Shown piece by piece: positions 1 to 64,000 of a stretch of 64,000 nucleotides of DNA. Position numbers and translations under genes: made by a program. The notes below the pieces were generated by a model that worked only from the letters and a program-made list of their open reading frames with translations, was not told where the DNA came from and ran no database searches. Source of the DNA: Chondrocystis sp. NIES-4102 (GTDB taxonomy: Bacteria > Cyanobacteriota > Cyanobacteriia > Cyanobacteriales > Xenococcaceae). The number at the start of each line of letters is the position of its first letter. Position 1 is the stretch's first letter. The stretch spans positions 2,480,001 to 2,544,000 of the forward strand of contig AP018281.1 of NCBI GenBank assembly GCA_002368355.1, read 5' to 3'.

Positions 1-39
1 TTTTCAACTCCATGACTTCTTTAGGTTGTCGCCTGCAAT

Positions 40-460
40 AACGGACAATTTGGGTGATTATCGGTTATTGGTGGTAGTAGGTAGGAGTCAGGAGGTAGCC
101 CTAAAGGATAAGCTATGTCTACGACAGCTACGCAACCGCAAATCCCACAAGGGGACAATGTAGGTAGTAGGTAGATCCTAGGGGCTACTAAGGATTGAGT
201 AACGAGTCAGGAGAAGCTAAAAGCTAAAAAATAATAGATATTATCGATTAAATTATTAATTAATCAAATAAAAAACGTTCCTTAATTATTTATGGCAATA
301 CCAGATAAAGTTAGGACATTTTTTTACTGATATCTACTAACTACTAACTACTACCTACTATCGTCACGTTCGCGCTTTGGTCGCCAAAGCAAGCGTGCGC
401 TCAGGGACGCTTTCCGCGCCTACTACCTACTACCTACTACCCAATCACCCTAACTGTCCT
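40..460. repeat. intergenic heptamer repeat cluster
   Basis: This gene-free stretch holds short tandem repeats of TAGTAGG (left, about 70-90 and 160-174) and the same heptamer in reverse orientation, CCTACTA (right, about 336-360 and 418-442). GAGTCAG and AGCTAAA heptamers lie near 198-228. A 45-nt module (100-144) recurs exactly at 39692-39736. The outer ends are similar in inverted orientation (GGACAATTTGGGTGATT near 43 against AATCACCCTAACTGTCC near 441), so the whole block looks like an inverted structure of about 0.4 kb. A hairpin GCTTTGG/CCAAAGC lies near 373-389. No gene is seen in 1-507. Confidence 0.8.
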
Positions 461-507
461 AATCTAATTTTGTACATTTATATTACTGACATAATACTTA
501 ATTCAAT

Positions 508-536
508 AAAAAAAGGCGGGTAGATCCCACCTCATA
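508..536 (-). terminator. rho-independent terminator of ndhH
   Basis: Read on the minus strand, GGTGGG and CCCGCC pair around the loop ATCTA (515-531), followed by a run of at least six T. It lies 24 bases beyond the ndhH stop, which suits a simple intrinsic terminator. Confidence 0.75.
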
Positions 537-559
537 AAAATAAGCTCAAATGCGATTAC

Positions 560-1744
560 TTAACGATCAACTGAACCCATAATAATATCAACACTACCAA
601 GAATCGGCATAATATCAGCTAATTTCACTCCTTTGAGCAATTCTGGTAATATTTGCAAATTATTAAAGTCAGGAGCGCGAATTTTCCAACGCCAAGGAAA
701 GACATTATCATTACCAACAATAAATATCCCTAATTCGCCTTTGCCACTTTCAAGACGAACATAATGTTCTCCTGCAGGAATTTTAAAAGTAGGTGCAACT
801 TTTTTAGCTACATACTGATATTCAAAGTCATTCCACTGCGACTTACGACCATCCGCTAGGCGTTTTGCCTCTAAGTTTTCATAAGCACCACCAGGAATAG
901 CTTTTAGTGCTTGACGAATAATCTTAACTGATTCTCGCATTTCACGGACTCGAACTAAGTAGCGAGCAAAACAATCCCCTGCTGTTTCCCACTGAACATC
1001 CCAATCAAAATCATCGTAACATTCATAGTGGTCTACTTTACGCAAGTCCCATTTAACGCCAGAAGCTCTTAACATCGGCCCTGATAAACCCCAGTTAATT
1101 GCTTGATCACGACTAATAGTACCTACTCCTTCTACACGACGGCGGAAAATTGGGTTATTAGTAATTAATTTTTCATATTCATCGACTTTAGGATCAAAAT
1201 AATCACAAAAATCTTCACATTTATCAATCCACCCGTAGGGTAAATCTACCGAGACACCACCAATACGGAAATAGTTATTATTAACTAATCTTTGACCAGT
1301 AGCAGCTTCCCATAGATCGTAGATTAACTCACGTTCACGGAAAATGTAGAAAAAGGGAGTTTGCGCTCCAACATCTGCCATAAACGGCCCTAACCACAAT
1401 AAATGATTAGCAATGCGGTTTAACTCTAGCATAATCACCCGAATATACTGAGCGCGTTTTGGTACTTCAATACCTGCCAGTTTTTCAGGTGCATTTACAG
1501 TAATTGCTTCATTAAACATTCCAGCAGCATAGTCCCAACGACTTACATAAGGAACATACATAACGCTGGTGCGACTTTCTGCAATTTTTTCCATTCCGCG
1601 ATGAAGATAACCAATTACGGGTTCGCAATCGATTACATCTTCCCCATCTAAAGTTACAATCAGACGTAAAACGCCGTGCATTGAGGGATGGTGCGGCCCC
1701 ATGTTCAGGATCATGGGTTCGGTTCTAGTTTCTATCTGTGCCAT
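560..1744 (-). CDS. ndhH: NAD(P)H-quinone oxidoreductase subunit H
   Basis: This is the 49-kDa-type subunit of the photosynthetic NDH-1 complex, which moves electrons from ferredoxin to plastoquinone in cyclic electron flow and respiration. It sits in the peripheral arm at the thylakoid membrane. The protein has 394 residues, the usual cyanobacterial length. It opens with the family signature [15 protein letters not shown] and includes [23 protein letters not shown] and the C-terminal DIIMGSVDR. It stands alone, with a terminator just downstream; the other NDH-1 gene here, ndhM, lies 3 kb away. Start at the ATG of [10 protein letters not shown]. The identification is secure. Confidence 0.97.
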
Positions 1745-1987
1745 AAATCAGCAATATTTCTTTGATTAAGAAATTTATTTTCCCTGCTACTATTAGTTAT
1801 CTATCTTATCGAGTTTCTGAACCTGATACGCACTCCTAGGTCAAAACTTCCCTGATTAATCGCTTGTTTTGCTCGGTTAAGTTTAAAATTTACAAGCAAT
1901 TTATAAGAAAGTTAATGATTGTTAAAGATTCTGTACCAAGTTTCTATTATGATAATTGATGAAAATCTTTAAGCGTGCATCAGGGCA

Positions 1988-3268
1988 ATGGTAGTTATTG
2001 AAGATAGAGTCACTTCTCTTTTAGAACCCTTTCAACGTTTCGGGGTAAATCTAGGTTTAGAAAGAATTAAAAAGCTACTAGCAGCCCTTGGTAATCCTCA
2101 AGAACAAGTCCCAATTATTCATGTCGCAGGTAGTAATGGCAAAGGTTCTGTCTGTGCTTATTTAGCATCTATATTGACTGAGGCAGGGTATCGGGTTGGA
2201 CGCTACACATCCCCTCATTTAGTAGATTGGACGGAAAGAATTCAATTAAATGGTAGAGCGATCGCTCCTTCTACTTTAGTTAGCATTATCCAAGATATTC
2301 AGGCTGTTATTGATCCAGATAGCGAAAGTCCCACTCAGTTTGAAGTAATTACCGCAGCAGCTTGGGTTTATTTTGCTCGTGAGCAAGTAGATGTGGCAGT
2401 TATAGAAGTGGGGTTAGGTGGTAGATTAGATGCTACTAACGTTTGCTCACGCCCTTTGGCTAGTATTATTACTTCTCTAAGTATGGAACATTGGCAACGT
2501 TTGGGCCCCACCCTGGCTGATATTGCTTGGGAAAAGGCAGGTATCATTAAACCTGATTGTCCCGTTATTGTCGGTCAAATACCCCCCGCAGCCCATGAAG
2601 TTGTCGCAGCTAGAGCGCAAGAATTAAACGCTCCTATTACTTGGGTAGAATCAGCTAAACCAGTTAATCTGGCTTTTAATAGTGATGTAAACTGGGCAAA
2701 ATACCAGGATTTAGAATACCCTTTACCTTTATTAGGGGATGTTCAGCTAAATAATTCGGCAAGTGCGATCGCTACTATTAAACTGCTACAACAGCAGGGA
2801 TGGTCTATACCTGACTTAGCTATTCAAACGGGAATGAATAAGACTCGTTGGTTAGGAAGACTACAATGGACTAACTGGAAAAATACTTCTTTCTTAATTG
2901 ATGGCGCGCATAACCCCGCAGCAGCGATCGCTTTAAGAAAATATGTTGATACCCTCCCTCAGCCTATAGTTTGGGTGATGGGAATGTTATCTACTAAAGA
3001 TCATCAAGATATTTTTCAGGCTTTACTCAGACCCCAAGATGAATTACATTTAGTCCCAGTTCCTGGACATAGTACTGCTGATCCACAAGAGTTAGCAACC
3101 TTAGCTCAAGAAGTTTGTCCCCTTTTAAGTAAGTGCCAAACCTACGACGATATTTTTATGGCTCTCGATAGTACCCTAGCTTCATCAGAGTCTAAAACAG
3201 TAGTTTTGTGTGGGTCTTTGTATTTAATTGGTTACTTTTTTCAAAACTCGAAGACAAAAGTTAGGTAG
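1988..3268 (+). CDS. folC: bifunctional folylpolyglutamate/dihydrofolate synthase
   Basis: FolC adds glutamate to dihydropteroate or folates using ATP, in the cytoplasmic folate pathway. The 426-residue protein has the Mur-ligase-like features HVAGSNGKGSVCAYLASIL (P-loop, about residues 44-62), GRYTSPHLVDWTERI, EVGLGGRLDATNV and IDGAHNPAA. The ATG at 1988 has a purine-rich CAGGG a few bases upstream. The last codons run into a TAGTAGG repeat: the final arginine and the stop codon are made from repeat sequence. The gene diverges from ndhH. Confidence 0.95.
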   Translation: MVVIEDRVTSLLEPFQRFGVNLGLERIKKLLAALGNPQEQVPIIHVAGSNGKGSVCAYLASILTEAGYRVGRYTSPHLVDWTERIQLNGRAIAPSTLVSIIQDIQAVIDPDSESPTQFEVITAAAWVYFAREQVDVAVIEVGLGGRLDATNVCSRPLASIITSLSMEHWQRLGPTLADIAWEKAGIIKPDCPVIVGQIPPAAHEVVAARAQELNAPITWVESAKPVNLAFNSDVNWAKYQDLEYPLPLLGDVQLNNSASAIATIKLLQQQGWSIPDLAIQTGMNKTRWLGRLQWTNWKNTSFLIDGAHNPAAAIALRKYVDTLPQPIVWVMGMLSTKDHQDIFQALLRPQDELHLVPVPGHSTADPQELATLAQEVCPLLSKCQTYDDIFMALDSTLASSESKTVVLCGSLYLIGYFFQNSKTKVR

Positions 3269-3535
3269 TAGGTAGTAGGGGTTGAGACAGAAGTTAATCA
3301 ATAAAAAGTAACGAGTTTGGAGTCTGGAGGAATTAACAGCTAAGAGCTAAGAGCCACCCTAACTATTTAGCTGTGCGTCAAAGCGGTGCATCGCAACATT
3401 TGCCGTGAGACGGCAAAAAATGGTCTTGGGGAGGGGCTGTCATCTGAGGTCTCCTCAGATGTTTATACGCCCTGTGGTTTCCCTCATGAGCGAATGCACC
3501 AAGAAGCTAATAGTCTAATAGCTAAAATATAAGAC
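3258..3535. repeat. heptamer repeats and palindrome-bounded module
   Basis: The spacer after folC begins with TAGTAGG repeats (3258-3280), then GAGTCTGGAG-like and AGCTAAGAGCTAAGAGC sequence. The module 3385-3500 is bounded by GGTGCAT and ATGCACC. It contains two perfect hairpins, TTTGCCGT-GAG-ACGGCAAA (3399-3417) and CATCTGAGG-TCT-CCTCAGATG (3441-3461), and the segment GGTTTCCCTC. A shorter relative of the module is at 31537-31582. No gene is seen. Confidence 0.75.
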
Positions 3536-3561
3536 ATCCTAAACACAACGACACCAATATA

Positions 3562-4578
3562 TTATGGTGTATTCCAGATGCGTTGATGATAATCTTCTAA
3601 TTTGGCATAAGGATCATTAGAGCTATGATCATGGTGATGATGATCGTGTCCGTGTCCGTGTCCATGTCCATGATGATGATCGTGTCCGTGTCCATCCAAA
3701 GCAGCCAGACGAAACTTACACATCTCACAATTCATACTAACTTGACCCAATTGCGCCTCAATTTCCCTTTCTCTAATTATCTGTAACAATTCAGGAGCAA
3801 TACCCATTTCAGGTAAACAATTAAAATCAATTTGAGGAAATTTTGCTGCTTGTTGGGCGGTAATTTGAAAAATCTTTTCCATCAAAGTACCTGTAAACAA
3901 GAAATAAGGCAAAACAATGACACGTTTGGGTTGATAAAGATAAGCTCGCTCAAAGCCAATATCAAGACGAGGGTGAGTAATACCAATAAAACAGGTTTCT
4001 ACAGTCTTATACCCACTACCTTCCCAAATAATACGAGCTAGTTTATAAACATCGCCATTGGCATCAGGATCGCTAGAGCCACGACCAACGAATAATAATA
4101 CAGTATCAGCACGAGAAATATTATGAGGATTATATTCTGGCTGATCCAATTGTGCCAAGCGATCGCGCCATAGATCGATAATTTTAGGGGTAATACCGAA
4201 ATGACGACCATAATTAAACTTTAGCTGGGGATATAATAAACGCGATCGATCTAATTCATTGGTAACGTCAAACTTATTATGTCTTGCAGCAAACAATAAA
4301 ATCGGTAAAGCTGTAATTTCTGTATAACCTTGTTCGACACAAGCTGCTACTCCTTCCTGAATAGATGGCTCTGTCAATTCTAAAAAACAGGGAATTACAG
4401 GACGAGAAGGATCTAACTTTTGATATTCTGTTACAAAATCGATAAAAGTTTGTCTACCTCGATCATTGCGCGTCCCGTGACCTATAGCAAGTAAGGGTCG
4501 AGTGTAGGGTAAAGCAGGAAGGGTGAGTGAATTAAAATTTGATTGAGCAAACGAACCAGTAGAATGAGTAATAACCAT
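3562..4578 (-). CDS. cbiX: sirohydrochlorin cobaltochelatase, CbiX long type
   Basis: This enzyme inserts cobalt (or possibly iron) into sirohydrochlorin, at the branch between cobalamin and siroheme synthesis. Of 338 residues, the N-terminal half carries [10 protein letters not shown] (33-42) and the second half [12 protein letters not shown] (165-176), the two CbiX/SirB repeats. Near the C-terminus is an MXCXXC motif (M282, C284, C287), known from Bacillus megaterium CbiX to hold an iron-sulfur centre. A histidine-rich tail (about 297-318) follows and probably binds metal. A cobalamin riboswitch directly upstream supports a role in cobalamin synthesis over siroheme. The ATG at 4578 follows a GAGGT ribosome site. 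Confidence 0.92.
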
Positions 4579-4605
4579 CTGTACCTCGCAGATCTGTAAA
4601 TTCGG

Positions 4606-4735
4606 TTTTTATTCATCGGTGGGCATTCTGACTAAGAGATGTAATTAACAGCATCTCATCACAGTTGCGGGACAGTGTTGGATTTACACCAAACTTTCCC
4701 CATTACTTCTAATGATTGTTTCCCATTAGAACCGA
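4606..4735 (-). promoter_or_regulatory. cobalamin riboswitch
   Basis: On the minus strand this leader contains the conserved core in order: TAATGGGGAAA, GGTGTAAATCC, ACTGTCCCGCAACTGTGA, then a hairpin GATGAGATGCTGTT..ACATCTC, and AGTCAGAATGCCC. These are the hallmarks of the adenosylcobalamin-sensing riboswitch. It ends about 30 bases before the chelatase start, so it probably controls ribosome access, though a terminator mechanism cannot be excluded. Confidence 0.93.
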
Positions 4736-4806
4736 TATTTTCCCATCATACTGTTAAGTCTGGCTGAGTAAATCAGGAATTAAGCTAAAGATTTAGCAAT
4801 TGATCC

Positions 4807-5163
4807 TTAAAAATATTTACCTTCAGTATCTGGGCTTTCCATACGTGGTAGACCCATACTATAGTTGCGTACCCTAGCACCTAGGTTATAATTAATTTCA
4901 CCCTTCATTAACAAAGAACGAATAAAGTGTTCTAGGTCTGAACCTATACGACGGAGATTATACTCACTCAAATCTTGGTCGTTATTTTCTTCTACATATT
5001 CATCAAATTTTCTATACACTTTTTGTAGTGCTTCTTCACTCCAGTTAAACTCATTATCAGGGTCAACATCTAGAGTCAGAACCTTATCGCTAGGAACTAA
5101 TTCATTATCTTTTACTTCGGCACTATAAATGCGGATATGACGGGTAGTGGATTTTACAAGCAT
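4807..5163 (-). CDS. ndhM: NAD(P)H-quinone oxidoreductase subunit M
   Basis: NdhM is a small, cyanobacteria/plastid-specific subunit of the NDH-1 peripheral arm. The 118-residue protein matches the family throughout: STTRHIRIYSAEVKDNELVP at the start, LTLDVDPDNEFNW, the central YNLRRIGSDLEHFIRSLL, and the C-terminal YSMGLPRMESPDTEGKYF. It lies between ppa and the cobalamin riboswitch on the same strand, and the 87-base gap from ppa allows co-transcription. Nothing is unusual in its sequence. Confidence 0.95.
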   Translation of the reverse strand: MLVKSTTRHIRIYSAEVKDNELVPSDKVLTLDVDPDNEFNWSEEALQKVYRKFDEYVEENNDQDLSEYNLRRIGSDLEHFIRSLLMKGEINYNLGARVRNYSMGLPRMESPDTEGKYF

Positions 5164-5250
5164 AATAAAACTGATTCAAAGATTATTTTTTACCTTGGTA
5201 TTGGTAGGGAAAATTGTTAAAACTCGCCTACCAAATATAATCATGCTAAT

Positions 5251-5760
5251 TTATTTATAAGCTTTGACGCATTCCTCAACCAAGGGGTTAACTGCATCAA
5301 CGTCTTTCCAGCCCAAAATTTCTGTAACTTTCTTCTCTAAATTTTTATAAGTTCTGAAAAACTCGGCAATCTCTTCTAAACGGTGAGGAGCAATATCTTT
5401 AATAGATTTAACCTCATTGTAACGAGGATCTTCGACTGGTACACAGAGAATTTTCTCATCGCGATCGCCACCGTCAATCATCTCTAACATCCCAATAGGT
5501 CTTGCAGCAATAACACAGCCAGCAAAAGTTGGTTCATCCATCAACACCATTCCATCTAAAGGATCGCCATCATCAGCTAAAGTATTGGGAACAAAACCAT
5601 AGTCATAAGGATACTTGACTGACGCAAAAAGAACACGATCTAAAGCAAAAGCGTTCATGTCTTTATCGAATTCGTATTTATTTTTACTTCCACCAGGAAT
5701 TTCAATTAAAACATTAATTACACCAGGTTTTGGCTGTGCTGGGATAAGGGATAAATCCAT
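5251..5760 (-). CDS. ppa: inorganic pyrophosphatase
   Basis: This is a soluble family I pyrophosphatase that hydrolyses pyrophosphate to phosphate and pulls biosynthetic reactions forward. Its 169 residues are the usual bacterial length. Visible motifs are [35 protein letters not shown] (metal-binding aspartates) and [20 protein letters not shown]. It is followed on the same strand by ndhM. The ATG at 5760 is the natural start of [13 protein letters not shown]. Confidence 0.96.
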
Positions 5761-6120
5761 GAAATTCTCCGAATCTTAATCTGTTAACTTAAAAGTAAGA
5801 AATTTATACTCAAGAGTGATCATACTTCTGTGAGGATAATGATTTATTAAGTTTTTGATGCTTAATATCATCGTCATCAAGCATTTTACCTGATTAAGAA
5901 ACTAAATCTCGATTTTTATTGCGGTCGCGTCCCCCCTAACCTTTGGTTAACAATTCATTGAATTAAAATAACTTGGATGCTTATATCAGATTTATTGCAC
6001 AAATTATTGTGGACTGGGTATAAAAAAACTCTATTATTAATACGGTTTAAGTTTAAATTTATCCCTTAGAGTTATTTATTGATACAGTAAGAATAACCAC
6101 AGTATGTATATCTAAGAATA
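5761..6120. other. spacer with nothing recognised
   Basis: This AT-rich divergent spacer lies between ppa and the pterin dehydratase gene. I see no plausible gene, repeat or structured RNA in it. It presumably holds both promoters, but no convincing promoter pair can be singled out. Confidence 0.5.
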
Positions 6121-6468: not shown

Positions 6469-6486
6469 TTTATAGTTAGTACTCAA

Positions 6487-10562: not shown

Positions 10563-10583
10563 CTATAAAATTATAAGATGCAA

Positions 10584-17690: not shown

Positions 17691-17694
17691 TCTT

Positions 17695-39824: not shown

Positions 39825-41801
39825 CTAAAATCTCAACTGTAGATTAAGTTTAAAATACATTTTTCTATCATTTTCTTGAATTATTTTCCCGTATCTATGT
39901 CTTGTTGTAGAAGGTGTATCGAGTTTAATATTATTAAATAAATATGACTTTAAAGTTTCTATATCTATAATATGAAATGCAACTTGTTCTCCAGAATTTT
40001 TAACTACGATTATACCGTTAGCTTCATAACAGCCATCCCATTTACTGCCTGGGAAAAATCCTAATAAATTATCTATTAAAAGTTTTTTGACTTTACTAAT
40101 TAAAAAGTTTTTATCTTCATACCCCAGTTCACTAATCACATTAGTATTTTCATCAAGGTAATCGATAATTTTAGTTAGAGATGAAATTCTATGTTTATAA
40201 AAAATCAAAAGAATACAGCCGATAAGATTAGGCATCAAAAAATCTACCATTTTTAAGTTATATTCCATTGCTTTTTTTTCTGGCGCAAGATACTTAAAAG
40301 TCCCACCATTTTTTTCTATAGCTTTAATTCTATCGGTTAATTTTGTTTTAGTGTTAATAGCATTAATTATATCTACTTGCTCTTTAGGTAAATTTTCTAT
40401 TTCAAAAATAAAATTAGTATTTCCTGAAGCATTAAGTAACGTAGGTTTACTTCCTAAATAAGATTTTATGCCAAATCCCTCATTTTCCTTGACGTAAAGT
40501 TGATGCTCGATATCCAAGCAAATATCTGATTTCTGAGTACTTGTTCCCCCTTTTATTAGAGTTAATCCCAAATTATTTTGGAGAACTTCAAATTCAGGAA
40601 TTGTAAAAGTCCCCTTACCTGCTTTTATTTGCTTAATTAAATTATTGATAACTTCACTATTAATTAGTTGAGCAATATTTATCTTTTCTACACTTCCTAC
40701 ATCCTTGTTAATAATCTCCACTTCACTTTTACCAATTAACCTAAAATCACGATTAATCTTATTACCAGTAACTTTTGTGACCTTTAAATAATTACTTGTA
40801 GGATTTAAATATTGATCAGCTAATAAAAGATGCTGCTCAGATAAAATTCTAATAAACGTTAATAACTCCGACCACTCACCCTTATTTTTCGTCTTTTTCA
40901 TCTCTGGTTGCTGACATTCCAAATTATCCATATAGGCAATAAGATTCCTTCCCACAGCCTCAATTGCATTAACCGCTACACTATTTCCTAACTGTTTAAT
41001 AGCTTGAGTAGCACTTACGGGAAATTCAAAATTGTCGGGAAAACCTTGCATCTTTCTCCCTTGAATATAAGTTAATTGTTTAACTTCACCATCAACTAAA
41101 TAGGAATCCCAATTACGACGATCATTAATATTAGAACCACGCCCACCTACTCTTAAAGTAAAGCCAATTTCTCGACTACAAACACCACCCCAAACATCAC
41201 TCATGTTAAATTTTAGAGGTAATTTATCGGGAAATTTAAAACTTTTATTAATACCTTCGTCACGAAAACCAATAATAAAAATTCTAGGTCTTAATTGTGG
41301 TAATCCATAATCAGAAGCTTTAACAATTTGATAGTAAAAAGAATAACCCAAATCAGATTCTAAAACCTTACGAATTAACTTAAAAGTTTGACCATGATCA
41401 TGATTAACTAATCCCTGAACATTTTCTAAAAAATAAGCCTTTGGTCGTTTAACTTCTAAAATATCCGCAATATTAAAAAATAAATTACCTCGTTCAGAAT
41501 CATGTAAATCATCAAAGCCTCTTTTATAACCAGCTTGACTAAAAGGTTGGCAGGGAAAACCAGCACATAAAACATCAAAATCAGGGATTTCATCAGGAAC
41601 AATTCCCCTGATATCACTATTAAATAAACCTGCTTGAAATAATTGAGGGGAAAGATTTTTAAAATTATGAATGTAAGTTTGCCTCGCATATTGATCAATT
41701 TCAGAAGCAAAAACACACTCTCCCCCCAAAGCGTGCATTGCTAAATGAAATCCACCAATTCCTGCAAATAAATCAATGAATTTAAATTTAGATAGTGTCA
41801 C
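39825..41801 (-). CDS. C5-cytosine methyltransferase fused to HpaII-type restriction endonuclease
   Basis: This single 658-residue chain holds both halves of a type II restriction-modification system. Residues 1-290 are a C5-cytosine methyltransferase: FIDLFAGIGGFHLAMHALGG (AdoMet site), catalytic C84 in GFPCQPFSQAG, ENV at 126-128, RPRIFIIGFRD, a short target-recognition region (about 185-250), and MQGFP...QLGNSVAV. Residues 307-658 resemble the HpaII endonuclease family: KGEWSELLTFIRIL at its start, candidate catalytic D426 and K446 (GFGIKSYLGSKPTLLNASG) and TNFIFEIE. HpaII cuts CCGG. The gene begins 19 bases after thiO-thiG. Confidence 0.88.
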   Translation of the reverse strand: MTLSKFKFIDLFAGIGGFHLAMHALGGECVFASEIDQYARQTYIHNFKNLSPQLFQAGLFNSDIRGIVPDEIPDFDVLCAGFPCQPFSQAGYKRGFDDLHDSERGNLFFNIADILEVKRPKAYFLENVQGLVNHDHGQTFKLIRKVLESDLGYSFYYQIVKASDYGLPQLRPRIFIIGFRDEGINKSFKFPDKLPLKFNMSDVWGGVCSREIGFTLRVGGRGSNINDRRNWDSYLVDGEVKQLTYIQGRKMQGFPDNFEFPVSATQAIKQLGNSVAVNAIEAVGRNLIAYMDNLECQQPEMKKTKNKGEWSELLTFIRILSEQHLLLADQYLNPTSNYLKVTKVTGNKINRDFRLIGKSEVEIINKDVGSVEKINIAQLINSEVINNLIKQIKAGKGTFTIPEFEVLQNNLGLTLIKGGTSTQKSDICLDIEHQLYVKENEGFGIKSYLGSKPTLLNASGNTNFIFEIENLPKEQVDIINAINTKTKLTDRIKAIEKNGGTFKYLAPEKKAMEYNLKMVDFLMPNLIGCILLIFYKHRISSLTKIIDYLDENTNVISELGYEDKNFLISKVKKLLIDNLLGFFPGSKWDGCYEANGIIVVKNSGEQVAFHIIDIETLKSYLFNNIKLDTPSTTRHRYGKIIQENDRKMYFKLNLQLRF

Positions 41802-41820: not shown

Positions 41821-43797
41821 CTAATTAATTGTGCCTGTAAGAGGTGAACTTGCACTAGCATATTGCTTAACAGGAATTCTACCAGCCAAATAAGCGAGTC
41901 TGCCTGCTTCTGTAGCCAAACCGATCGCCCGTGCCATTGCTACAGGATTTTGAGCCAGAGCGATCGCACTATTAACCAGTAAAGCATCCGCCCCCATCTC
42001 CATAGCTAAAGCAGCCTCACTTGGTGTACCTATCCCAGCATCCACCACCACTGGCACATTGGCTTCTTCGATGATAATAGCAATATTAGCTGCATTATTA
42101 ATCCCTTGTCCCGAACCTATAGGTGAACCCAAAGGCATCACCGTCGCACACCCAACTTCTTCTAAACGTTTGGCTAGTAGAGGATCAGCATTGATATAGG
42201 GTAAAACGGCAAACCCTTCCTTAACTAATTGTTCGGCTGCTTGTAATGTGCCAATGGGATCGGGAAGAAGATATTTCGCATCGGGAATAACTTCGAGTTT
42301 AATAAAATTATTATCCTCCTGTCCTAACAACTTTGCCATTTCGCGACCCAAACGGGCAACCCTTACCGCTTCTTCCGCCGTTTGACACCCTGCGGTGTTA
42401 GGTAACATCCAAATTTTACTCCAGTCTATTGCTTCTGCTAATCCTTCATGCCCTGGGGCTTTAGTTTGGACTCTTCTAACTGCAACTGTAATGATCTCAC
42501 AACCACTAGCAATTACGCTTTGCTGCATGGCTTCCAAACTCGGATATTTACCTGTGCCAGTCATCAAACGAGAATTAAAAGTACGTCCTGCGATCGTTAA
42601 TTTTTTAGGATCGGCAATTATAGTAGCTGAGGCGGTTAAAGAAGTCTGAGAGTTGGATTTGGGTAATGATAATTTTTGCGTATTACTAGTAGAATTCATA
42701 TTACTGGGTTGATGATTAAAACGTTGATAACTAAAAGCAGTTAATAGAGGATCAAATTGCTGGTTCAAGATTAAATCACTAATAAGGGTAGCCGTGATCG
42801 GGGCAAGTAAAATCCCATTGCGATAATGTCCTGTTGCCAAAAATAAGTTCTCACAAGCACTCTGTCCCAATATTGGTAACTCATCAGGAGTGCCAGGACG
42901 AAAACCCCACCATAACTCTTCAATTTGCCAATTAGCTACTTCAGGATACAATTCAATAGCTTTAGCAAGTAGATTTTGAATACCTTGAGGTGTATTAAAA
43001 GGAGAAAAGCCAACCTCTTCTACTGTTGCACCAATAACTAATCTGCCATCTTGTCGAGGTACAAGATAAATATTATCTCCATACAATACCCGTTGCAGAG
43101 GATAGGGCTGATGAAGCTTTTGGGGCATTTTAAGAGCTAACATCTGTCCTTTAACAGGACGCACAGGCAAGGGTAACAGTTGATTTGCCCATGATCCTGC
43201 TGCTAAAACATAACTATCGGCAGTTAAATTACCGAAATCAGTTAAAACCCCGTCAACCCGTCCTTGTCGCTGTTGAATTGCCCTAACCTTAACCCCTTCT
43301 TTAATCTCCACCTGCAAAGTTTGGGCAGCTTGTAAGAGCGATCGCATTAAACAACGATTATCTACTTGACCATCTTCTGCATACCACCAACCACCTACAA
43401 TGTTACTTCCTAACCCAGGTTGATATAAACTAATAGCAAGCTTATCCAACCAGACAGCATCATGAGTGTTAACAGGTATTGATTCTATGGGGCGAGTAAC
43501 AGGGGCAAGAATACCACAAGGTAAATACCCAGTTTCAACTCCCGTCAACTCTTCCAACTTTTGTGTCCATTGAGGATATAGCCAACGAGATCTTAAACAC
43601 AGATCAAGCATGGGAGACGAGGAAATTTTTTCTGCCATTGGTGCTAACATTCCTGCTGCTGCGTGGGATGCTGCCTGCATAAAATCTTGACTGATCACAG
43701 TTACCTTAAGGCTTTGATCCCGTTGTTTTAATTCAACAGCGATCGCTAGCCCCATTACTCCACCACCAATAATTAGAATTTCTCTTGCTTTTTTCAT
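41821..43797 (-). CDS. thiO-thiG: glycine oxidase ThiO fused to thiazole synthase ThiG
   Basis: This bifunctional enzyme serves thiamin synthesis. ThiO (about 1-365) oxidises glycine to the imine that ThiG (about 395-658) joins with deoxyxylulose phosphate and ThiS sulfur to form the thiazole. The FAD motif [15 protein letters not shown] lies at the N-terminus, and [11 protein letters not shown] ends ThiO. ThiG shows [11 protein letters not shown], the Schiff-base lysine in [29 protein letters not shown], and [20 protein letters not shown]. The fusion is common in cyanobacteria. A linker of about 30 residues rich in S, T and N joins the two. Confidence 0.95.
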
Positions 43798-56751: not shown

Positions 56752-56832
56752 AAACTAATAGACCAGTTGCTTATATTTTAAGAAGCACGTAAATTATTAT
56801 ATTTCATTGATTCCGCTAAGCGGTATTAGCCC

Positions 56833-57360: not shown

Positions 57361-57389
57361 AAGATTAGTTGCTTGACAATTCGGATAGA

Positions 57390-57450
57390 TTATAGAGTAG
57401 GAGTCAGGTAGTGGGGGTTTGGATAGTAGGTATTAGAGATCAGTTAAAGG
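57390..57450. repeat. short degenerate heptamer cluster
   Basis: AGAGTAGGAGTCAGGTAGTG, then GGGGTTTGGATAGTAGGTAT and AAAGGCTAAACTC: degenerate pieces of all three heptamers within 60 bases, between convergent genes. Confidence 0.6.
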
Positions 57451-57457
57451 CTAAACT

Positions 57458-58723
57458 CTAAACCATGTCCCGTGAGTTATCTCGTAAAAACTGTTCAACA
57501 AAACGAACAAATATTTCTACTCCCATACCCAAAACAGTTTCATCAAAATCAAAGCGAGGATGATGATGAGGATATGCTAGACCTTTACTAGGATTTGCTG
57601 AACCCAAGAAAAAATAGCAACCTGGAACTTGCTCTAGAAAGAAAGACATATCCTCTCCTCCCATAGTTTGACATTCTGGCACAACACCTAATGGAGTTTC
57701 TACCACCTCCTGTGCAATAGAACTTACCAAACGAGCGATCGCAGGGTCATTAATTGTCGGAGGATATAATTGCCAATGTTCAAGTCGATAGTCTGCACCA
57801 TACATTTGACAAACACCTGCAATAATTGATTTTAATCTTTGGGCAATTAAGGTTTGCAGTTGAGGATTAAAATAGCGAATTGTACCACTTAATTTGGCAC
57901 TATCAGCGATGACATTTAGAGCCGTACCTGCTTGAAATTCACCCACAGTAACCACCGCAGCATCTAAAGGATTAACATTACGCGAAACAATAGTTTGCAA
58001 AGCATTGACTATTTGACTGGCAACTACGATAGAATCTACGGTTTGATCAGGCATTGCACCATGACCCCCTTTACCTAAAATCTCACAGCGAAAACATTCA
58101 ACTGCTGCCATTAATGCGCCACTACGCACCCCTACTGTACCTACAGGTAGATTATTCCAAAGATGTAACCCAATGATGGCATCAACATCAGGATTTTCCA
58201 ATACCCCAGCTTCAATCATCGGTTTTGCCCCCCCAGGGCCTTCTTCTGCTGGTTGGAAGATAATTTTTACCGTACCTTGCCAATTATCTTTATGCTGGGA
58301 TAAATAATATGCTGTGCCTAAAGCGATCGCTACATGACCATCATGTCCGCAGGCGTGCATTTTTCCTTCATGCACAGAGCGATAGGATACTTCGTTAGCT
58401 TCCTGAATTGGTAAAGCATCCATATCTGCCCGAATGGCTAAAACTTTACCTGGATAATTACTATTGATGGTGGCGACAATTCCTGTTTGAGCAATCTCTA
58501 CTTGATGGGGAATCTGCCATTGTTGCAGTTTTTGCTTGATAAATTCGGCGGTTATTTGTTCTTGGAAACCTAGTTCTGGTTTTTGATGAAGCTGACGTCG
58601 CCATTCTACTAAATTAGATTGTAGATTACGTATTTGTAAACGGATTTTAGTTAGATCAACTGATTGAGCTTCTGTAATTGTAAAGACCATATTGTCAAAT
58701 CTAGGTACTATTTTTTCTCTCAA
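57458..58723 (-). CDS. M20 family amidohydrolase (paralogue)
   Basis: This 421-residue hydrolase of the N-acyl-amino-acid amidohydrolase group shows RRQLHQKPELGFQEQITAEF, IRADMDALPIQEANEV, MHACGHDGHVAIALGTAYYL, FQPAEEGPGGAKPMIEAGVL and MGGEDMSFFLEQVPGC. The first 20-25 residues may be an extension. It is a diverged paralogue of the gene at 49832-51007. Confidence 0.9.
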   Translation of the reverse strand: MREKIVPRFDNMVFTITEAQSVDLTKIRLQIRNLQSNLVEWRRQLHQKPELGFQEQITAEFIKQKLQQWQIPHQVEIAQTGIVATINSNYPGKVLAIRADMDALPIQEANEVSYRSVHEGKMHACGHDGHVAIALGTAYYLSQHKDNWQGTVKIIFQPAEEGPGGAKPMIEAGVLENPDVDAIIGLHLWNNLPVGTVGVRSGALMAAVECFRCEILGKGGHGAMPDQTVDSIVVASQIVNALQTIVSRNVNPLDAAVVTVGEFQAGTALNVIADSAKLSGTIRYFNPQLQTLIAQRLKSIIAGVCQMYGADYRLEHWQLYPPTINDPAIARLVSSIAQEVVETPLGVVPECQTMGGEDMSFFLEQVPGCYFFLGSANPSKGLAYPHHHPRFDFDETVLGMGVEIFVRFVEQFLRDNSRDMV

Positions 58724-58861
58724 AACCTAGACGAATAGAGTTAGGAGAGGCAGTTTGTGTAAGTTTAACTCATCTTAACAAATAAGCAGAAATTTTTTTT
58801 TCACCAAAGGTTGCAAAATTACTATAAAGTTTGCTACATTAGTTAAGCACTCAGGAAGTGA

Positions 58862-58934
58862 GCCAGGATAGCTCAGGTGGTAGAGCAGAGGACTGAAAAT
58901 CCTCGTGTCGGCAGTTCAAGTCTGCCTCCCGGCA
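58862..58934 (+). tRNA. tRNA-Phe (anticodon GAA)
   Basis: The 73-nucleotide sequence folds as a cloverleaf: acceptor GCCAGGA/TCCCGGC, D stem GCTC/GAGC, anticodon arm GAGGA-CTGAAAA-TCCTC with anticodon GAA, variable GTGTC, T arm GGCAG-TTCAAGT-CTGCC, discriminator A. CCA is not encoded. The acceptor has an A4-C69 mismatch where the usual cyanobacterial gene, as I recall it, has T69. The same C creates the only CCGG I found in the window. An open frame starting at 58905 inside the tRNA is not a gene. Confidence 0.93.
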
Positions 58935-60273
58935 TTGGAAATTAGAAAAATTGCAGATGTTTTTCGTGGCGGTTCTCCAGATTCAAAAGACGATGCAAAA
59001 TGTTTTAGAGGCAACATTCCTTGGATTATGATTGCAGACCTTAACAAATCTCTAAATAAGTATATTTCTCAAACAACAGACACGGCTACTGATGCTGGCG
59101 TACAAAAAAGCAACACTTATTCTTTCAAATAGTGCAACTGTTTGCGTACCCAAAATATTAGCTGTAGATGTTGGCTATCTTTTATCTTTATTAATTTTTC
59201 TGTTTTATTAGTCCTAAAATAATTGATAAATATAAACAAGGAGTAATACAAATTAATTTAAACATTGCTATTGTTAGCAATATAGATCTTTTGCTACTAT
59301 CTCTCAAACAACACAAACGCATCGTAGCCAAAATAGAAGCCCTACAAACAAGAAGAAACCTAGTAAAAGAACAACTACAACCAATTAAACTTCTACTAGA
59401 TCAATTCCGTCAATCTGTTTTAGCTCCTGCTTTTCGTGGTGATTTAACTAAAGACTGGTGCGAACAAAACACAAATGTTGAACCTGCTTCAAAATTAATT
59501 ACATCTAATTATAAAGCCTCAAATAAATTACCTATCAGTTGGTGTGAAGCTTTAGTAAAAGATGTGGTTGAAAATTTGAAATATTGAACAGCCAAAAAAT
59601 ATACCGATGAAATAAAAGGAATACCTGTGTTGTTAATGGAGCTATATGCTATTTAAATTTAAAATATGCAGAACTACCTAATAAAAATTTTGACATATTA
59701 AGACTGCTCCCTGGGGATATATTGATGATTATGTCAAATAGCAGTATATCTTCAGTTGGTAGAACAGCTATTATTAATAAACGTGAGCGTAATTTTGCCT
59801 ATACTGGATATTTAATTAGATTAAAACATAGTAAAAATTTGCTTGCTCCAAAATATTTAAATTTATAGTTTTATAATTAGGATATTAGATTATATAGAGA
59901 AATTATTCTACGTTAAACAAGTGGAATAGACAAGATTAATAACGATTAAACAAAGAAATTAATTATTTCTCTGGCATCCCTTCAAGCACAAAAATCAATA
60001 ATCCGCAGTATCGAATCTCTCTTTAAACTAGCAAACAATATTGAACAACAATATCAATAAACAGAAACCTAACTAGAAACCCTCAACAAATCCATCTTAG
60101 CTAAAGCATTCCGAGGCAAATTAGTAGCCCAACATCCTGATGTTCAACCTGCATCGGTATTATTAGAAAGAATAAAAGCAGCAGGAGAAAAAACAACAGC
60201 TAAAAAATATAATATTGATATTAAAATAAATAGTAAAAAGCTAGAACAACAGTTATATATATCTGGAATCTGA
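58935..60273 (+). pseudogene. hsdS: broken type I restriction specificity gene (hsdS) fragments
   Basis: Beginning directly after the tRNA, scattered frames match HsdS. 58935-59132: IRKIADVFRGGSPDSKDDAK and GNIPWIMIADLNKS (target-recognition start). 59291-59587: TRRNLVKEQLQPIKLLLDQF and LAPAFRGDLTKDW (conserved helices). 59635-59868: LRLLPGDILMIMSNSSISSV and GRTAIINKRERNFAYTGYLI (second target-recognition domain). About 59985-60273: LNKSILAKAFRGKLVAQHPD and ASVLLERIKAAGEKT (C-terminal end), with two in-frame stops. Frameshifts and stops make it non-functional. Two C-terminal-type segments suggest more than one ancestral copy. Confidence 0.85.
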
Positions 60274-60317
60274 ACAATAAAATTCATTTGAGTCAATACT
60301 TAAAGCATCATATAATA

Positions 60318-60836
60318 TTAGCAAAATTGATAATTCCAGGGTAAGCTACCCGAACTGTCCCCCATGCTCATATTTAGACACTCTCTTTTTTTTGTAGTTC
60401 CATCTTTTTGAATTGCATGATCGATTATCCAATCAGTATGAGCAAGTCCGAAGGAAACTTCTGCTAAATTACCACAATTTTTAACTAAATTATCAGCCCA
60501 ATTATGTTGAAGTTGCGTAGAATTTAAAATATTATATGCTATGTTATTGTTTTTTGAATTATAGTTATTTAGAGAAATATAGTAATCGTTATTAGGAGAG
60601 TAATTCATTTGTCCAAAAGTAAATGATAAAGACCCATCTCTTGGAGTAGGATTACCTATACGATAGTTATTTGCTGAATTGTTAACTGAAACATTGACAG
60701 AAGTACCGTGGCTATATGCTTCTTCTATAACTTTATTTATTGTTAAAGAACAATTGTAAACTGATTGTGCATTAACCGTAGATATGGGAAAATTGTAAGT
60801 TAGTAAAGGTACTAAGAATAAAAATTTAGTAGACAT
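60318..60836 (-). CDS. small secreted protein, unknown
   Basis: From the ATG at 60836 this is a 172-residue protein with a signal peptide (STKFLFLVPLLTYNFPISTV, likely cut after NAQ). The mature part is rich in asparagine and serine (SVNVSVNNSANNYRIG, YYISLNNYNSKNNN) with cysteines near the N- and C-termini. I do not recognise the family. It lies between the hsdS wreckage and the tRNA-like remnant, so it may be cargo of the same insertion. Confidence 0.55.
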   Translation of the reverse strand: MSTKFLFLVPLLTYNFPISTVNAQSVYNCSLTINKVIEEAYSHGTSVNVSVNNSANNYRIGNPTPRDGSLSFTFGQMNYSPNNDYYISLNNYNSKNNNIAYNILNSTQLQHNWADNLVKNCGNLAEVSFGLAHTDWIIDHAIQKDGTTKKRECLNMSMGDSSGSLPWNYQFC

Positions 60837-61657
60837 ATTTATTGTTACAAAGACTTTAATTAAATAGTATCTTTTAGAATAAATATTATCTGTGATTTGC
60901 ATTCAGGAGCTTGAAAGATTAGTTATTGTTCTTAAAAAAACATATTTATCTATTCATTACCCAAGAGTAAGTTAAATATATCAATATAAATAAATTAAGT
61001 GATTATTAGATAGTAGTTATACCCGAGGAATTACCTATAGAGATAAAGCATTTTCACAAAATTGATTTGCTACCCTTGTTCTCAATTTGTCATTAATAAT
61101 TTAATATTTGAGTTAAAAATTACATATCTATATAGTGCATTTTATTATTGATGCTAATCATCACTCAATAACACTATGAGCTATTGATCTGCCTATCGAT
61201 TAATAATTGTGAGAAAGTGGAGCAATTTATTGTAGGTTTATCTCAATCTTTTCTTAAGGTAAATAAAATATCAAAATAACATTAATCTAAAGAAAAATTG
61301 GGGAGAGAAAATATAGCGATCGCTATAAATTATATTTTACAGTAGTTTAAATAAAATTAAGTGAAGGACTTAAAAGCCTGGTGTTGGTAGTTAAAGTTTG
61401 CCTTCCAGCCTTGAAAATGATTAAAGTATAGTTATTCTTGTATCAAGTACTATATAATAATTCTCGAAAACCACGACAGACTTGTGACATTTTTAAGCTC
61501 ACGATCGCAATGCACCGCTTCTATGGATATTTTAGCCTGTTCATAAACTTAATTGGTATTGTTGATCTTTGCAGCTAATGCTTAAAAATTAATATAACTT
61601 GATTAACTTTTAATCTATACCATTAAATAGCGATCACTATTTATCAATGTTCACCCT
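60837..61657. other. AT-rich spacer containing tRNA-like remnant
   Basis: About 800 bases with no convincing gene. It contains a decayed copy of the 3' half of tRNA-Phe (61366-61418, listed separately), and near 61508 ATGCACCGCTT, which echoes in reverse the palindromic module at 3381-3391. Otherwise I see only AT-rich sequence. Confidence 0.5.
61366..61418 (+). pseudogene. decayed partial copy of tRNA-Phe (candidate attachment site)
   Basis: These 53 bases align without gaps to 58890-58942 (anticodon arm to just past the tRNA end), 42 of 53 identical. Shared blocks include GGACT, GTGT, AAGT and TGCCT. Most differences are C-to-T or G-to-A changes. The same orientation 2.5 kb downstream of the intact tRNA is the layout left by an element integrated at a tRNA 3' end. 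Confidence 0.8.
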
Positions 61658-62146
61658 ATGCTTGTTAAAAATAAGACTAAACAATTTTTCTTAGGTTTAA
61701 TAGCGGTTACACCTACTATAATTATTGTCAATTGGTTGTTTCCAGTCAAATCAGCTTTAGCTAATTGTCAAGTTTCATCAACAGCAAAAGAAGTTATTGA
61801 TCTAACTAATAAAATACGGACAGAACATGGCTTAAATCGTCTCAAGACTAATTGCAAATTATCTCAAGCTGCTCAAGCCCACACCCTTGATATGATTTCT
61901 ATGGGAGAAATAAGCCATACTGGCTCTGATGGCTCTAGTTTAGCTACTCGCGCTGAAAAAGCGGAATATTCCTATTTAAATTTAGGCGAAAATGTCGCTC
62001 AAGGTCAAACAAGTCCCACCGAAGTCTTAAACTCCTGGATTAATAGTGATGGACATCGCGAAAATATACTTAATCCTAGTTTTACAGAGATTGGAGTCGG
62101 GTATGAAGATAATTATTGGACTCAAGTATTCGGTAGACCTAGATAG
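61658..62146 (+). CDS. secreted CAP-domain (SCP-like) protein
   Basis: The 162 residues begin with a signal peptide or anchor (FFLGLIAVTPTIIIVNWLFP, cleavage likely near ALA-NC). The CAP fold follows: VIDLTNKIRTEHGLNRLKTN, AAQAHTLDMISMGEISHTGS, NLGENVAQGQTSPTEVLNSW, INSDGHRENILNPSFTEIGV and GYEDNYWTQVFG. The histidines and glutamates of the CAP cavity (HTG, GEN, GHREN) are present. Bacterial members are extracellular with unclear function. Confidence 0.9.
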   Translation: MLVKNKTKQFFLGLIAVTPTIIIVNWLFPVKSALANCQVSSTAKEVIDLTNKIRTEHGLNRLKTNCKLSQAAQAHTLDMISMGEISHTGSDGSSLATRAEKAEYSYLNLGENVAQGQTSPTEVLNSWINSDGHRENILNPSFTEIGVGYEDNYWTQVFGRPR

Positions 62147-62274
62147 TTTTTTTAATTGTATTACAACAGTTAACTTAAGCGAATTTTAATTATTTATTTA
62201 ACTTATATTTACTTGCTACTGGGATATTAATCATCAGCTTGAGATAACTGTTGAACTAACTTTAAATTTAAACA

Positions 62275-63063
62275 ATGCCATTTCTAACGATCAAAGGTGT
62301 ATTTAATCCTCAAAGTGGTATTCTTGATGGCGACTCAGTTAGATTTCTGGCGGATGATGATGCTTTATTTGATCAATTGCAAGGAAGACTCAAATTTAAG
62401 CCTAATGGCGAAGTTCAACTACGATATGAAGCAATAGATGCTATAGAAAAGGCAGCCAGACAACCTTTTGCTGCCAATGCTACAAAACGCAACTTGAAAT
62501 TATTAGGCGGTAATGAAAATGGTTTGCCAGGATATATTTTATCTAGCCACACGGATAATAATGGTAGACCTGTTTGTTTTGTGTTTATCGGGGATACGCC
62601 CAATTTAGACGGCACAGAAATAATTCTTACACCCACAGCAGTTAGAAATAGTGTCAATTATCAATTACTAGCAGAAGGTTTTGTATATCCTCTGTTTTAT
62701 GACAAACTCTACAAAGAATTAAGAGACGAGATGGTAACAGCAGTAGAAGCTGCTAGGGAACAAAATCTGGGGTTATGGCAAGCAGATGTATCAAATAAAG
62801 GATTTATTATTCAACCACCAGTAGATTTAAGGGAATTAAGCCCTATTTTTCCTAAACTATGGCGCAGACTAGAAAGTTTTTACCGTCGTTTATCAAATCA
62901 AGATAAAACTGCGGATCAGTTTCTCGCATTTTTGGCACAAGGAAACGATGCTTTATTTACTATTCGGGATCAACGCTATATTAATTTTTCTAGTGCTTTG
63001 GAGTTGCAAGGAGACAAAATTAAATTGAATTATAAACCAGAGCAAATGGTTTTCCGCAGTTAG
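62275..63063 (+). CDS. thermonuclease (SNase)-like domain protein
   Basis: The 262-residue protein has the staphylococcal-nuclease-like pattern: GDSVRFLADD, LRYEAIDAIEKAARQPF, YQLLAEGFVYPLFYDKL, and AAREQNLGLWQADVSNKGF. The usual catalytic arginine and glutamate positions are not clearly kept (LRYEAIDA in place of LRLxGIDAPE), so activity is doubtful. No signal peptide is seen. The C-terminal 60 residues are unfamiliar. Confidence 0.75.
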   Translation: MPFLTIKGVFNPQSGILDGDSVRFLADDDALFDQLQGRLKFKPNGEVQLRYEAIDAIEKAARQPFAANATKRNLKLLGGNENGLPGYILSSHTDNNGRPVCFVFIGDTPNLDGTEIILTPTAVRNSVNYQLLAEGFVYPLFYDKLYKELRDEMVTAVEAAREQNLGLWQADVSNKGFIIQPPVDLRELSPIFPKLWRRLESFYRRLSNQDKTADQFLAFLAQGNDALFTIRDQRYINFSSALELQGDKIKLNYKPEQMVFRS

Positions 63064-63487
63064 ATAGAAATTGATAAATAGAAGAAGTATTATTACTTGG
63101 ATATTAAAGCCAGAAGTAGGGTAATTAGCTTAAATGGGTATGGTGATCGAGATACAGTAGCGGAGGCTTACTTCATCACACTTAGAATTTGCAATAGTTG
63201 AGAGACTAGAAGTACCGTTTACCAACGTAGTAAAAGGTAGACAAATAAAAAAATTGAACCTAAGCAACACTAGTTTAGGTTTTCTACGTTTAAGGTGCAA
63301 TGTGATCGATCTTCAACATCATAAATTATCTGAAAATCTATCAGCAGACTTGAGTCTACAACCTTGTCTTCTATTGTCGGCTAAAAACAATAAATTTATC
63401 CTGTTTACCTAGTTGACTTAAAAATCAAATATCGGTATGATATTTTTCATGTTGATTTAAAAATCAATTACTAAGGAGGAAAAAAAT
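63064..63487. promoter_or_regulatory. spacer with paired near-palindromes upstream of coiled-coil gene
   Basis: Two 16-base near-palindromes TTGAYTTAAAAATCAA lie at 63413-63428 and 63452-63467. A third inverted repeat between them, AAATATC-GGTAT-GATATTT (63426-63444), includes a TATGAT hexamer. This looks like an operator region or a folded leader just before the strong AAGGAGGA ribosome site at 63473. No gene is seen in 63064-63410. Confidence 0.5.
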
Positions 63488-64000
63488 ATGAATTATCTAA
63501 CAAACAATCAACAAGTTACACCGTCTACAGCCAAGGATGCGATCGCGATCGCTTTTAAGCAATTGTTAGATCAGTATCAACAGAATGAATATAAAATTGC
63601 CACAAAAGAGGAAGAAGCAGAAAAGGAAAAGAACAAGGAGTTATTAGAAAAAACTAGGAATTATACAGTTAATAATATTGTTAATGATCTGGCTGCTTTG
63701 CAGTTAAATTTTGGTGGTGTAATCAATCAATTGACCAATAACTTAACTACAGAAAGCGATAAATTAGAAGAATTAAAGAAAGCGATCGCAGTTGAATCTA
63801 AGTATTTGGAACAATTAAATCAAGTCCGTTTAGTTGCCGATGCTTTACACATTTTTGAACAGGAACATCAAGAAAAAATTGCTTCTTTAGAGATGGAAAC
63901 TCAATCAGAAAAAGAAATGATTGAGCAAGAAATGGTTCAGGTAAGAAAAGTATGGGAAAAGGAACAAATTCAATTTGAATATAAAGTAGCAGCAGCAGCA
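63488..64000 (+). CDS. long coiled-coil protein, truncated by window end
   Basis: The ATG at 63488 follows a strong AAGGAGGA site, and the frame stays open to the last base (171 codons seen). The sequence is almost wholly charged helix, e.g. ATKEEEAEKEKNKELLEKTR, ESDKLEELKKAIAVESKYLE, ASLEMETQSEKEMIEQEM, which predicts a long coiled coil. No signal peptide or membrane span appears in the part visible. The function cannot be told from this part. Confidence 0.8.
   Translation, partial: MNYLTNNQQVTPSTAKDAIAIAFKQLLDQYQQNEYKIATKEEEAEKEKNKELLEKTRNYTVNNIVNDLAALQLNFGGVINQLTNNLTTESDKLEELKKAIAVESKYLEQLNQVRLVADALHIFEQEHQEKIASLEMETQSEKEMIEQEMVQVRKVWEKEQIQFEYKVAAAA

What the first reader, a model, noticed from the sequence alone, without database searches (positions are those of the whole stretch)
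1..64000. CCGG is almost absent from the whole window
Reading all 64 kb for CCGG (its own complement) I found a single copy, 58929-58932. At this base composition about 60-70 would be expected by chance. GGCC, with the same composition, is present repeatedly (for example 1077, 2504 and 8811), and CGCG is common, so the deficit is specific. Long residence of a CCGG-cutting enzyme such as the fusion at 39825-41801 would explain it. The scan was by eye and may have missed a few sites.
Basis: partly seen in the sequence, partly recalled or inferred. Interest (0 to 1): 0.8.

Follow-up and report, generated by a model that had tools for sequence, protein, structure and literature searches.

The report
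Genome purged of one restriction site
The four-letter DNA word CCGG is almost erased from this cyanobacterium's genome outside its RNA genes, most likely because its lineage has long carried a gene that fuses a CCGG-cutting enzyme to its own protective methylase.

Summary
Confirmed and extended. CCGG occurs once in the window against 44 expected, and that copy lies in tRNA-Phe. Fourteen other chromosomal stretches (280 kb) hold 14 copies, 11 of them in one rRNA operon. The deficit is not specific: GGCC and several six-base palindromes are depleted too.

The gene at 39825-41801 joins a C5-methyltransferase to a full-length HpaII-family endonuclease. In its family, the 11 genomes with the gene (7 intact, 4 damaged or shortened) have CCGG observed/expected 0.00-0.14; the other 16, two with relics, 0.06-0.83. 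Avoidance is thus partly family-wide, strongest in carriers. One relative keeps a deletion scar of the gene at the same locus. All 20 genomes checked elsewhere with a full fusion frame are poor in CCGGTT; one is lowest of 61 in its family.

Codon data argue against methyl-cytosine decay. Best reading: selection during long residence of this fusion, plus traces after loss. Site avoidance is known; near-complete avoidance with a single-chain enzyme is unusual, because published analysis found none for Type IIC/G systems (PMC4687349).

The parts
1..64000 (.). Window depleted of CCGG (1 copy) and, less strongly, of GGCC (18 copies)
   Evidence: Counts against three compositional models
39825..41801 (-). 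Fusion gene, 658 aa: C5-cytosine methyltransferase plus HpaII-family endonuclease; no CCGG inside the gene
   Evidence: Pfam PF00145 and PF09561; count inside the gene 0
40923..41786 (-). Methyltransferase half (about residues 6-293) with motifs PCQ (82-84), ENV (125-127) and QxRxR (168-172), invariant in 25 fusions
   Evidence: motif names recalled
39828..40886 (-). Endonuclease half (residues 306-658), full PF09561 profile 1-359; D425 nearly invariant and K445 invariant, a plausible catalytic pair by my reading
41821..43797 (-). thiO-thiG fusion gene (thiOG), the syntenic neighbour that marks the insertion place; next to the fusion also in G019, and next to the deletion scar in G020
58862..58934 (+). 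tRNA-Phe gene that holds the only CCGG of the window
58929..58932 (+). The single CCGG, in the 3' arm of the tRNA acceptor stem

Best explanation
The missing CCGG is restriction-site avoidance. The fusion protein is inferred to methylate CCGG with its N-terminal half and to cut unmethylated CCGG with its C-terminal half. Sites left unmethylated for a while after replication or repair would be cut now and then, so during a long residence selection removed CCGG from protein genes and spacers by whatever substitution was available, and left copies mainly where RNA structure resists change (rRNA, tRNA). Several relatives that lack the gene today are still depleted; I read this as a trace of lost copies, shown directly for one relative (G020) by a deletion scar at the same locus. 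Shown: the depletion, the domains of the fusion, the association within the family and elsewhere, the scar, the substitution pattern. Inferred: enzymatic activity, CCGG specificity, self-cutting as the selective force, and loss (rather than another system) as the cause in the non-carriers.
For: CCGG 1 vs 44.0 in the window, lowest of 256 tetramers; 4 vs 231 in window plus 14 chromosomal stretches with rRNA masked. Fusion of PF00145 and full-length PF09561. Family: 11 genomes with the gene 0.00-0.14, 16 others 0.06-0.83, p=2e-4; within the genus 9 vs 4, p=0.017; control tetramers p 0.05-0.39. Whole-genome CCGGTT: 8 carriers 1.6-24.5 per Mb, 10 others 6.2-210, p=0.0015. Other genomes: 20 of 20 with a full fusion frame have 0.9-92.7 per Mb (19 of these 20 lie outside the own family); G254 lowest of 61 in its family, 13.0 vs median 799. 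DNA around 24 fusions: CCGG 23 vs 240.6, CGCG 318 vs 346.3. Scar at thiOG in G020. The 7 cyanobacterial fusions in the tree form one clade, 100/99. Avoidance in all three codon phases; C replaced more by A than by T.
Against: Relatives without the gene can be as depleted: G014 0.06, G010 0.07, G006 0.08. G052 and G173 of other families are very low in CCGGTT without a PF09561 match. In family f14 three non-carriers (46.5-47.5 per Mb) are as low as the lowest carrier (46.4). G246 has the endonuclease with a stop inside and no depletion (600 per Mb), and L055 has a separate methylase and distant endonuclease and 734 per Mb. Many other palindromes are avoided too, so a general process contributes. 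The statistics ignore phylogeny. No activity, specificity or methylation was measured.
Confidence: 0.7

Rival explanations
1. Lineage-wide avoidance caused by a different, older CCGG-specific restriction system, or by several systems with CCGG-containing sites; the fusion is a later arrival in an already purged genome.
For: G014, G010 and G006 lack the fusion yet stand at 0.06-0.08; most of the 16 family genomes without the gene are below 0.4. Many other restriction-type palindromes are avoided, so this lineage has met many systems.
Against: Genomes holding the fusion are the extreme in the family, and genomes with the fusion in unrelated groups are also low. No close match to the fusion's target-recognition region exists outside the 11 holders. 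The MspI family gave no match in 243 genomes, but its control also rang nowhere, so that says nothing.
Confidence: 0.2
2. Mutational decay: methylation of the inner C in CCGG raises C-to-T mutation and the sites decay to CTGG and CCAG without selection.
For: A C5-methyltransferase is present, and C5-methylated cytosines are known mutation hot spots (established knowledge).
Against: CTGG 0.88 and CCAG 0.90 of expectation in the own sample, no excess. Before Gly codons the missing NCC is replaced by A (+0.126) rather than T (+0.041), although in G009 T is the favoured third base there.
Confidence: 0.06
3. A base-composition or codon-usage effect with no link to restriction.
For: The genome is 36% G+C, and GGCC and other palindromes are also rare.
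Against: The maximal-order Markov model accounts for CCG and CGG and still expects 44; CGCG is near expectation; relative G009 has 0.83; avoidance holds in all three codon phases.
Confidence: 0.01

Closest known systems
Restriction-site avoidance in host genomes and traces of lost R-M systems (Rusinov et al. 2015, PMC4687349; passages and part 1 of 2 of the Discussion read)
   Same: Site of a resident system strongly under-represented; relatives that lost the system keep the deficit; long residence gives stronger avoidance.
   Different: That study saw no avoidance for Type IIC/G (single-chain) systems; here the system is single-chain and the avoidance is near-complete. It also reports CCGG over-represented in Helicobacter. 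Their statistic is Karlin's ratio; mine is a maximal-order Markov ratio.
HpaII-type Type IIP restriction-modification (PF09561 endonuclease plus C5-methyltransferase), including the functional mitochondrial pair of a katablepharid (PMC8099122; passages, abstract and section 6 read)
   Same: Same endonuclease family and same class of methyltransferase; in the mitochondrial case, too, the R-M region lacks CCGG.
   Different: There the endonuclease and methyltransferase are separate genes; here they are one open frame, methyltransferase first.
Type IIC R-M enzymes, and the engineered RM.Eco29kI fusion (PMC4081073 and PMC3039593; passages read)
   Same: Nuclease and methyltransferase activities on one polypeptide.
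   Different: Described Type IIC enzymes are mostly an N-terminal nuclease followed by a gamma-class methylation domain and cut away from their site; the Eco29kI fusion was made in the laboratory with the nuclease first. Here a C5-methyltransferase precedes an HpaII-family nuclease, in nature.

Membership tests
HpaII-type R-M (PF09561 plus C5-methyltransferase) | Full-length HpaII-family endonuclease domain | tested here: met
   PF09561 profile 1-359 of 359, 326 bits, cut-off 25
HpaII-type R-M (PF09561 plus C5-methyltransferase) | C5-methyltransferase with catalytic motifs | tested here: met
   PF00145; PCQ, ENV and QxRxR invariant in 25 fusions
HpaII-type R-M (PF09561 plus C5-methyltransferase) | Methylates and cuts CCGG | not testable with these tools
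   Inferred from family membership and from CCGG depletion
Orthodox Type II system | Endonuclease and methyltransferase as separate, independently acting proteins | tested here: not met
   One open frame of 658 codons; whether the halves act independently is unknown
Type IIC enzyme | Endonuclease and methyltransferase domains in one polypeptide | tested here: met
Type IIC enzyme | Mostly N-terminal nuclease with gamma-class methylation domain | tested here: not met
   Here a C5-methyltransferase comes first; described as the majority, not as obligatory, in PMC4081073
Type IIC/G enzyme | One recognition domain shared by nuclease and methyltransferase | not testable with these tools
   Both halves are full length, which suggests two recognitions; the model's recognition region is of low confidence
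Restriction-site avoidance | Site of a resident or lost system under-represented against a compositional model | tested here: met
   0.02 in the window; 4 vs 231 in the genome sample
Restriction-site avoidance | Deficit stronger in holders of the system than in relatives without it | tested here: met
   p=2e-4 in the family, with several depleted non-holders and no phylogenetic correction

The most novel reading that the evidence does not exclude
Joining methylase and nuclease in one chain does not spare the host: a natural C5-methylase/HpaII fusion, spread across several phyla, repeatedly purges its host genomes of CCGG, here almost down to the RNA genes, and the purge outlasts the gene. What spares hosts of ordinary Type IIC/G systems would then be their shared recognition domain, not the fusion as such.
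Probability: 0.45. Interest if true: 0.7.

Novelty: new variant of a known kind. Interest (0 to 1): 0.55.

Why it matters
Site avoidance is a main genomic sign that restriction enzymes harm their own hosts. Published work found it for two-protein Type II systems and not for single-chain ones, and offered both dependence on the methylase and shared recognition as reasons (PMC4687349). This fusion separates the two: one chain, apparently two recognitions, and low CCGG in genomes of several phyla. The family also offers intact, damaged, deleted and absent states of one gene, so the rate at which a purged word returns after loss could be measured.

Tried and rejected
m5C deamination was tested and disfavoured. 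A composition effect was rejected. MspI endonuclease as an alternative cutter gave 0 of 243 matches, but its control rang nowhere, so this says nothing. The roughly 700-aa methylase proteins of G014 and G004 were examined as a possible second CCGG system: the G004 one is a methylase plus HaeII-family endonuclease fusion; the G014 locus was cut at its edge and only the methylase was seen, and G014 has no HaeII match. A predicted structure (mean pLDDT 77.4, pTM 0.50) gave only matches of the C5-methyltransferase family in the 50 rows shown of 231 with E up to 0.001, and none for the endonuclease half among those rows; a sequence search of solved structures likewise matched only the methyltransferase half (49 of 49). 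A comparison of tRNA-Phe with relatives failed: the fetched loci hold no other intact copy. A relic of the fusion downstream of thiOG was looked for in nine further relatives and none was found at E up to 0.01. Literature: one search returned no paper; of the lists I saw titles and abstract beginnings and opened passages of PMC3039593, PMC4081073, PMC8099122 and PMC12707154; no natural C5-methylase/HpaII fusion was among what I saw. That is not proof of absence from print.
Full report
Observation. An exact count gives one CCGG in 64,000 bases, at 58929, against 44.0 expected under the maximal-order Markov model (69.6 by base composition), the lowest ratio of all 256 tetramers. The copy lies in the tRNA-Phe gene 58862-58934.

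Genome. The window lies in a 5.0 Mb genome of 7 contigs. Fourteen chromosomal stretches of 20 kb, spaced along the 4.5 Mb contig, hold 14 CCGG against 203 expected; 11 are in the one stretch with an rRNA operon. Stretches of the six smaller contigs (109,699 bases) hold 2 against 93. The 5.6 kb rRNA-operon region itself has 11 against 18.6 expected, so it is far less depleted. With rRNA masked, window plus chromosomal stretches (338,400 bases) hold 4 against 231: the tRNA copy, one in the frame of an rtcB gene that holds an intein domain, one in a phosphoribulokinase-family frame and one in an AcrB-type transporter frame. The whole-genome count of CCGGTT is 8, or 1.6 per Mb, the lowest per Mb among 243 genomes of the order as I read the table (own value computed).

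The gene. 39825-41801 (minus) encodes a C5-cytosine methyltransferase (PF00145) followed by a complete HpaII-family endonuclease (PF09561, profile 1-359 of 359). In 25 aligned fusions the methylase motifs PCQ, ENV and QxRxR are invariant; in the endonuclease half K445 is invariant and D425 nearly so, a plausible PD-(D/E)xK-type pair by my reading. By sequence and by the 50 structure rows shown, solved relatives cover only the methyltransferase half. Thirty-one loci in the genome collection encode relatives; their titles name Cyanobacteria, Bacteroidetes, several proteobacterial classes, Campylobacterales and Gracilibacteria. In 22 of the 31 (L025-L046) one open frame covers nearly the whole query; the alignment used 21 of these 22 (L032 left out), the window and three family members. 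In the tree of these 25 the 7 cyanobacterial fusions form one clade (100/99), while gamma, zeta and Bacteroidetes rows intermix, as with horizontal transfer.

Family comparison. All 27 held genomes of the family were searched; 13 have a PF09561 match. Seven have the full fusion in an open frame (G000, G007, G013, G019, G022, G023, G024). Four have damaged or shortened genes (G001, G016, G017, G018). Two have relics (G020, G021). In stretches from all 27 (40-340 kb each), CCGG observed/expected is 0.00-0.14 in the 11 with the gene and 0.06-0.83 in the other 16 (Mann-Whitney p=2e-4; within the genus 9 against 4, p=0.017; control tetramers GGCC, CGCG, GCGC, TCGA p 0.05-0.39). These p-values ignore phylogeny. 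Against the simple reading, G014, G010 and G006 lack the gene yet stand at 0.06-0.08, and G020, with only a relic, at 0.07; damaged copies (G001 0.00, G016 0.04, G017 0.05, G018 0.03) are as low as intact ones. Whole-genome CCGGTT for the 18 of 27 family members in the order sample agrees: 1.6-24.5 per Mb in 8 with the gene, 6.2-210 in 10 others (p=0.0015). Outside the 11 holders no genome has a close match to the fusion's target-recognition region; weaker matches cover only its conserved end.

Relics. The fusion lies just 3' of thiOG in the window and in G019. In G020 the same place holds codons 1-25 followed at once by codons 623-658, a deletion scar. In G021 codons 624-658 survive between two frames that I read as secA and an ABC-transporter gene (names from my reading of the translations). 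Downstream of thiOG in nine other relatives (G013-G018, G021, G022, G024) no trace was found; in G013 and G024 the fusion lies elsewhere. So the gene has been lost at least once in place while the depletion persisted.

Wider comparison. In 243 genomes of the order 14 have a PF09561 match; 10 of these 14 and 10 of the other 229 fall below 50 CCGGTT per Mb (9 of the 14 belong to the own family). Exceptions: G246, whose endonuclease frame holds a stop, has 600 per Mb like its genus (530-594 in the six others); G052 (75% complete) and G173 are very low without a match. In genus g21 the three carriers have 46, 61 and 87 per Mb, the two non-carriers 159 and 174; but in the same family f14 three non-carriers of other genera have 46.5-47.5. 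For 28 of the 31 loci (I left out L025, L027 and L048, of the own family; L026, also of that family, was kept and gave the counts of G013), 20 of 20 genomes with the full fusion frame have 0.9-92.7 CCGGTT per Mb (median 19.2). The genome with only the methylase half has 203, and one with a separate methylase and a distant endonuclease 734; the six split, shortened or contig-end copies range from 4 to 57. I have baselines from relatives for only one of these non-cyanobacterial lineages: in the family of the Methylococcales genome G254, G254 is lowest of 61 (13.0; median 799), and the other known carrier, G267, is seventh lowest (92.7); the other 59 were not tested for the gene. The DNA around 24 of the 25 aligned fusions (all but the window's) gives CCGG 23 against 240.6 and CGCG 318 against 346.3, with GGCC also low (147 against 459.3); the 25 genes themselves have CCGG 1 against 23.4.

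Mechanism. Avoidance is seen in all three codon phases of the own genome: NCC before GG 0.002 against 0.146 before other G-starting codons; CCG before G 0.001 against 0.073; CGG after C 0 of 295 against 0.084. In the first case the missing C is made up more by A (+0.126) than by T (+0.041), which is not what deamination of a methylated inner C predicts; in G009, which is hardly depleted, T is the favoured base there (small sample). CTGG and CCAG are not in excess (0.88 and 0.90). This favours selection against the site, presumably through cutting of incompletely methylated copies, over methylation-driven decay. It does not prove it.

Other sites. The own sample also avoids RGCGCY (1 against 70, summed over its members), CMGCKG (2 against 80), RCATGY (1 against 56), TTCGAA (0 against 32.9) and others. 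No HaeII-family endonuclease (RGCGCY, recalled) was found in the own genome, while 5 of 27 family genomes have a full or partial match (its 14 control genomes did not ring). These look like further present or past restriction systems.

Literature. Rusinov et al. 2015 (PMC4687349; passages and part 1 of 2 of the Discussion) describe avoidance as depending on length of residence, traces of lost systems, and no avoidance for Type IIC/G, which they ascribe to lower self-toxicity and faster change of specificity. A katablepharid mitochondrion holds a functional HpaII-type pair as two genes (PMC8099122). An engineered Eco29kI fusion kept both activities (PMC3039593; passages). What I saw from searches held no natural C5-methylase/HpaII fusion.

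Verdict. The kind of phenomenon is known; avoidance this complete with a single-chain enzyme, with the same tendency in unrelated hosts, is the unusual part.

Noticed in passing
window and own-genome stretches L056-L069: Besides CCGG the genome nearly lacks RGCGCY, CMGCKG, RCATGY, TTCGAA, GTGCAC and GGTACC, and GGCC is at 0.17-0.24 of expectation; no HaeII-family endonuclease was found in the own genome.
   Followed up: partly
L021:1405-3510 (G004): A second kind of natural fusion: C5-methyltransferase joined to a HaeII-family endonuclease in one open frame. G019 and G018 have HaeII-family frames close behind a methylase.
   Followed up: partly
58862-58934: The acceptor stem of tRNA-Phe has an unpaired A4/C69; a G at position 4 would restore the pair and create a second CCGG. 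Whether site avoidance cost the tRNA a base pair could not be checked for lack of relatives' copies.
   Followed up: partly
L128:989-1035 (G020): A 47-base 3' half of tRNA-Phe, identical to the window's, stands alone; it looks like an attachment-site scar of an integrative element.
   Followed up: no
L126:3365-3538 (G020) and L123:17298-17402 (G021): Two relics of the fusion at different loci both begin at about codons 621-624; why the same C-terminal 35 codons survive is unexplained.
   Followed up: no
L060:18001-19998: rtcB with an intein domain; the CCGG of that stretch lies just before the intein's C-terminal end, a possibly mobile insert in a purged genome.
   Followed up: no
G009: One family member has nearly normal CCGG (0.83; 210 CCGGTT per Mb) while GGCC stays at 0.17, so the two avoidances are independent.
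   Followed up: no
L048, L050, L052: Shortened fusions in single open frames (571, 525 and 524 aa) that seem to lack roughly residues 310-435, the start of the endonuclease half, in three different organisms.
   Followed up: no
G052 and G173: Two genomes of other families with very few CCGGTT (8 in 3.7 Mb, 72 in 4.6 Mb) and no PF09561 match; another CCGG system may act there.
   Followed up: no
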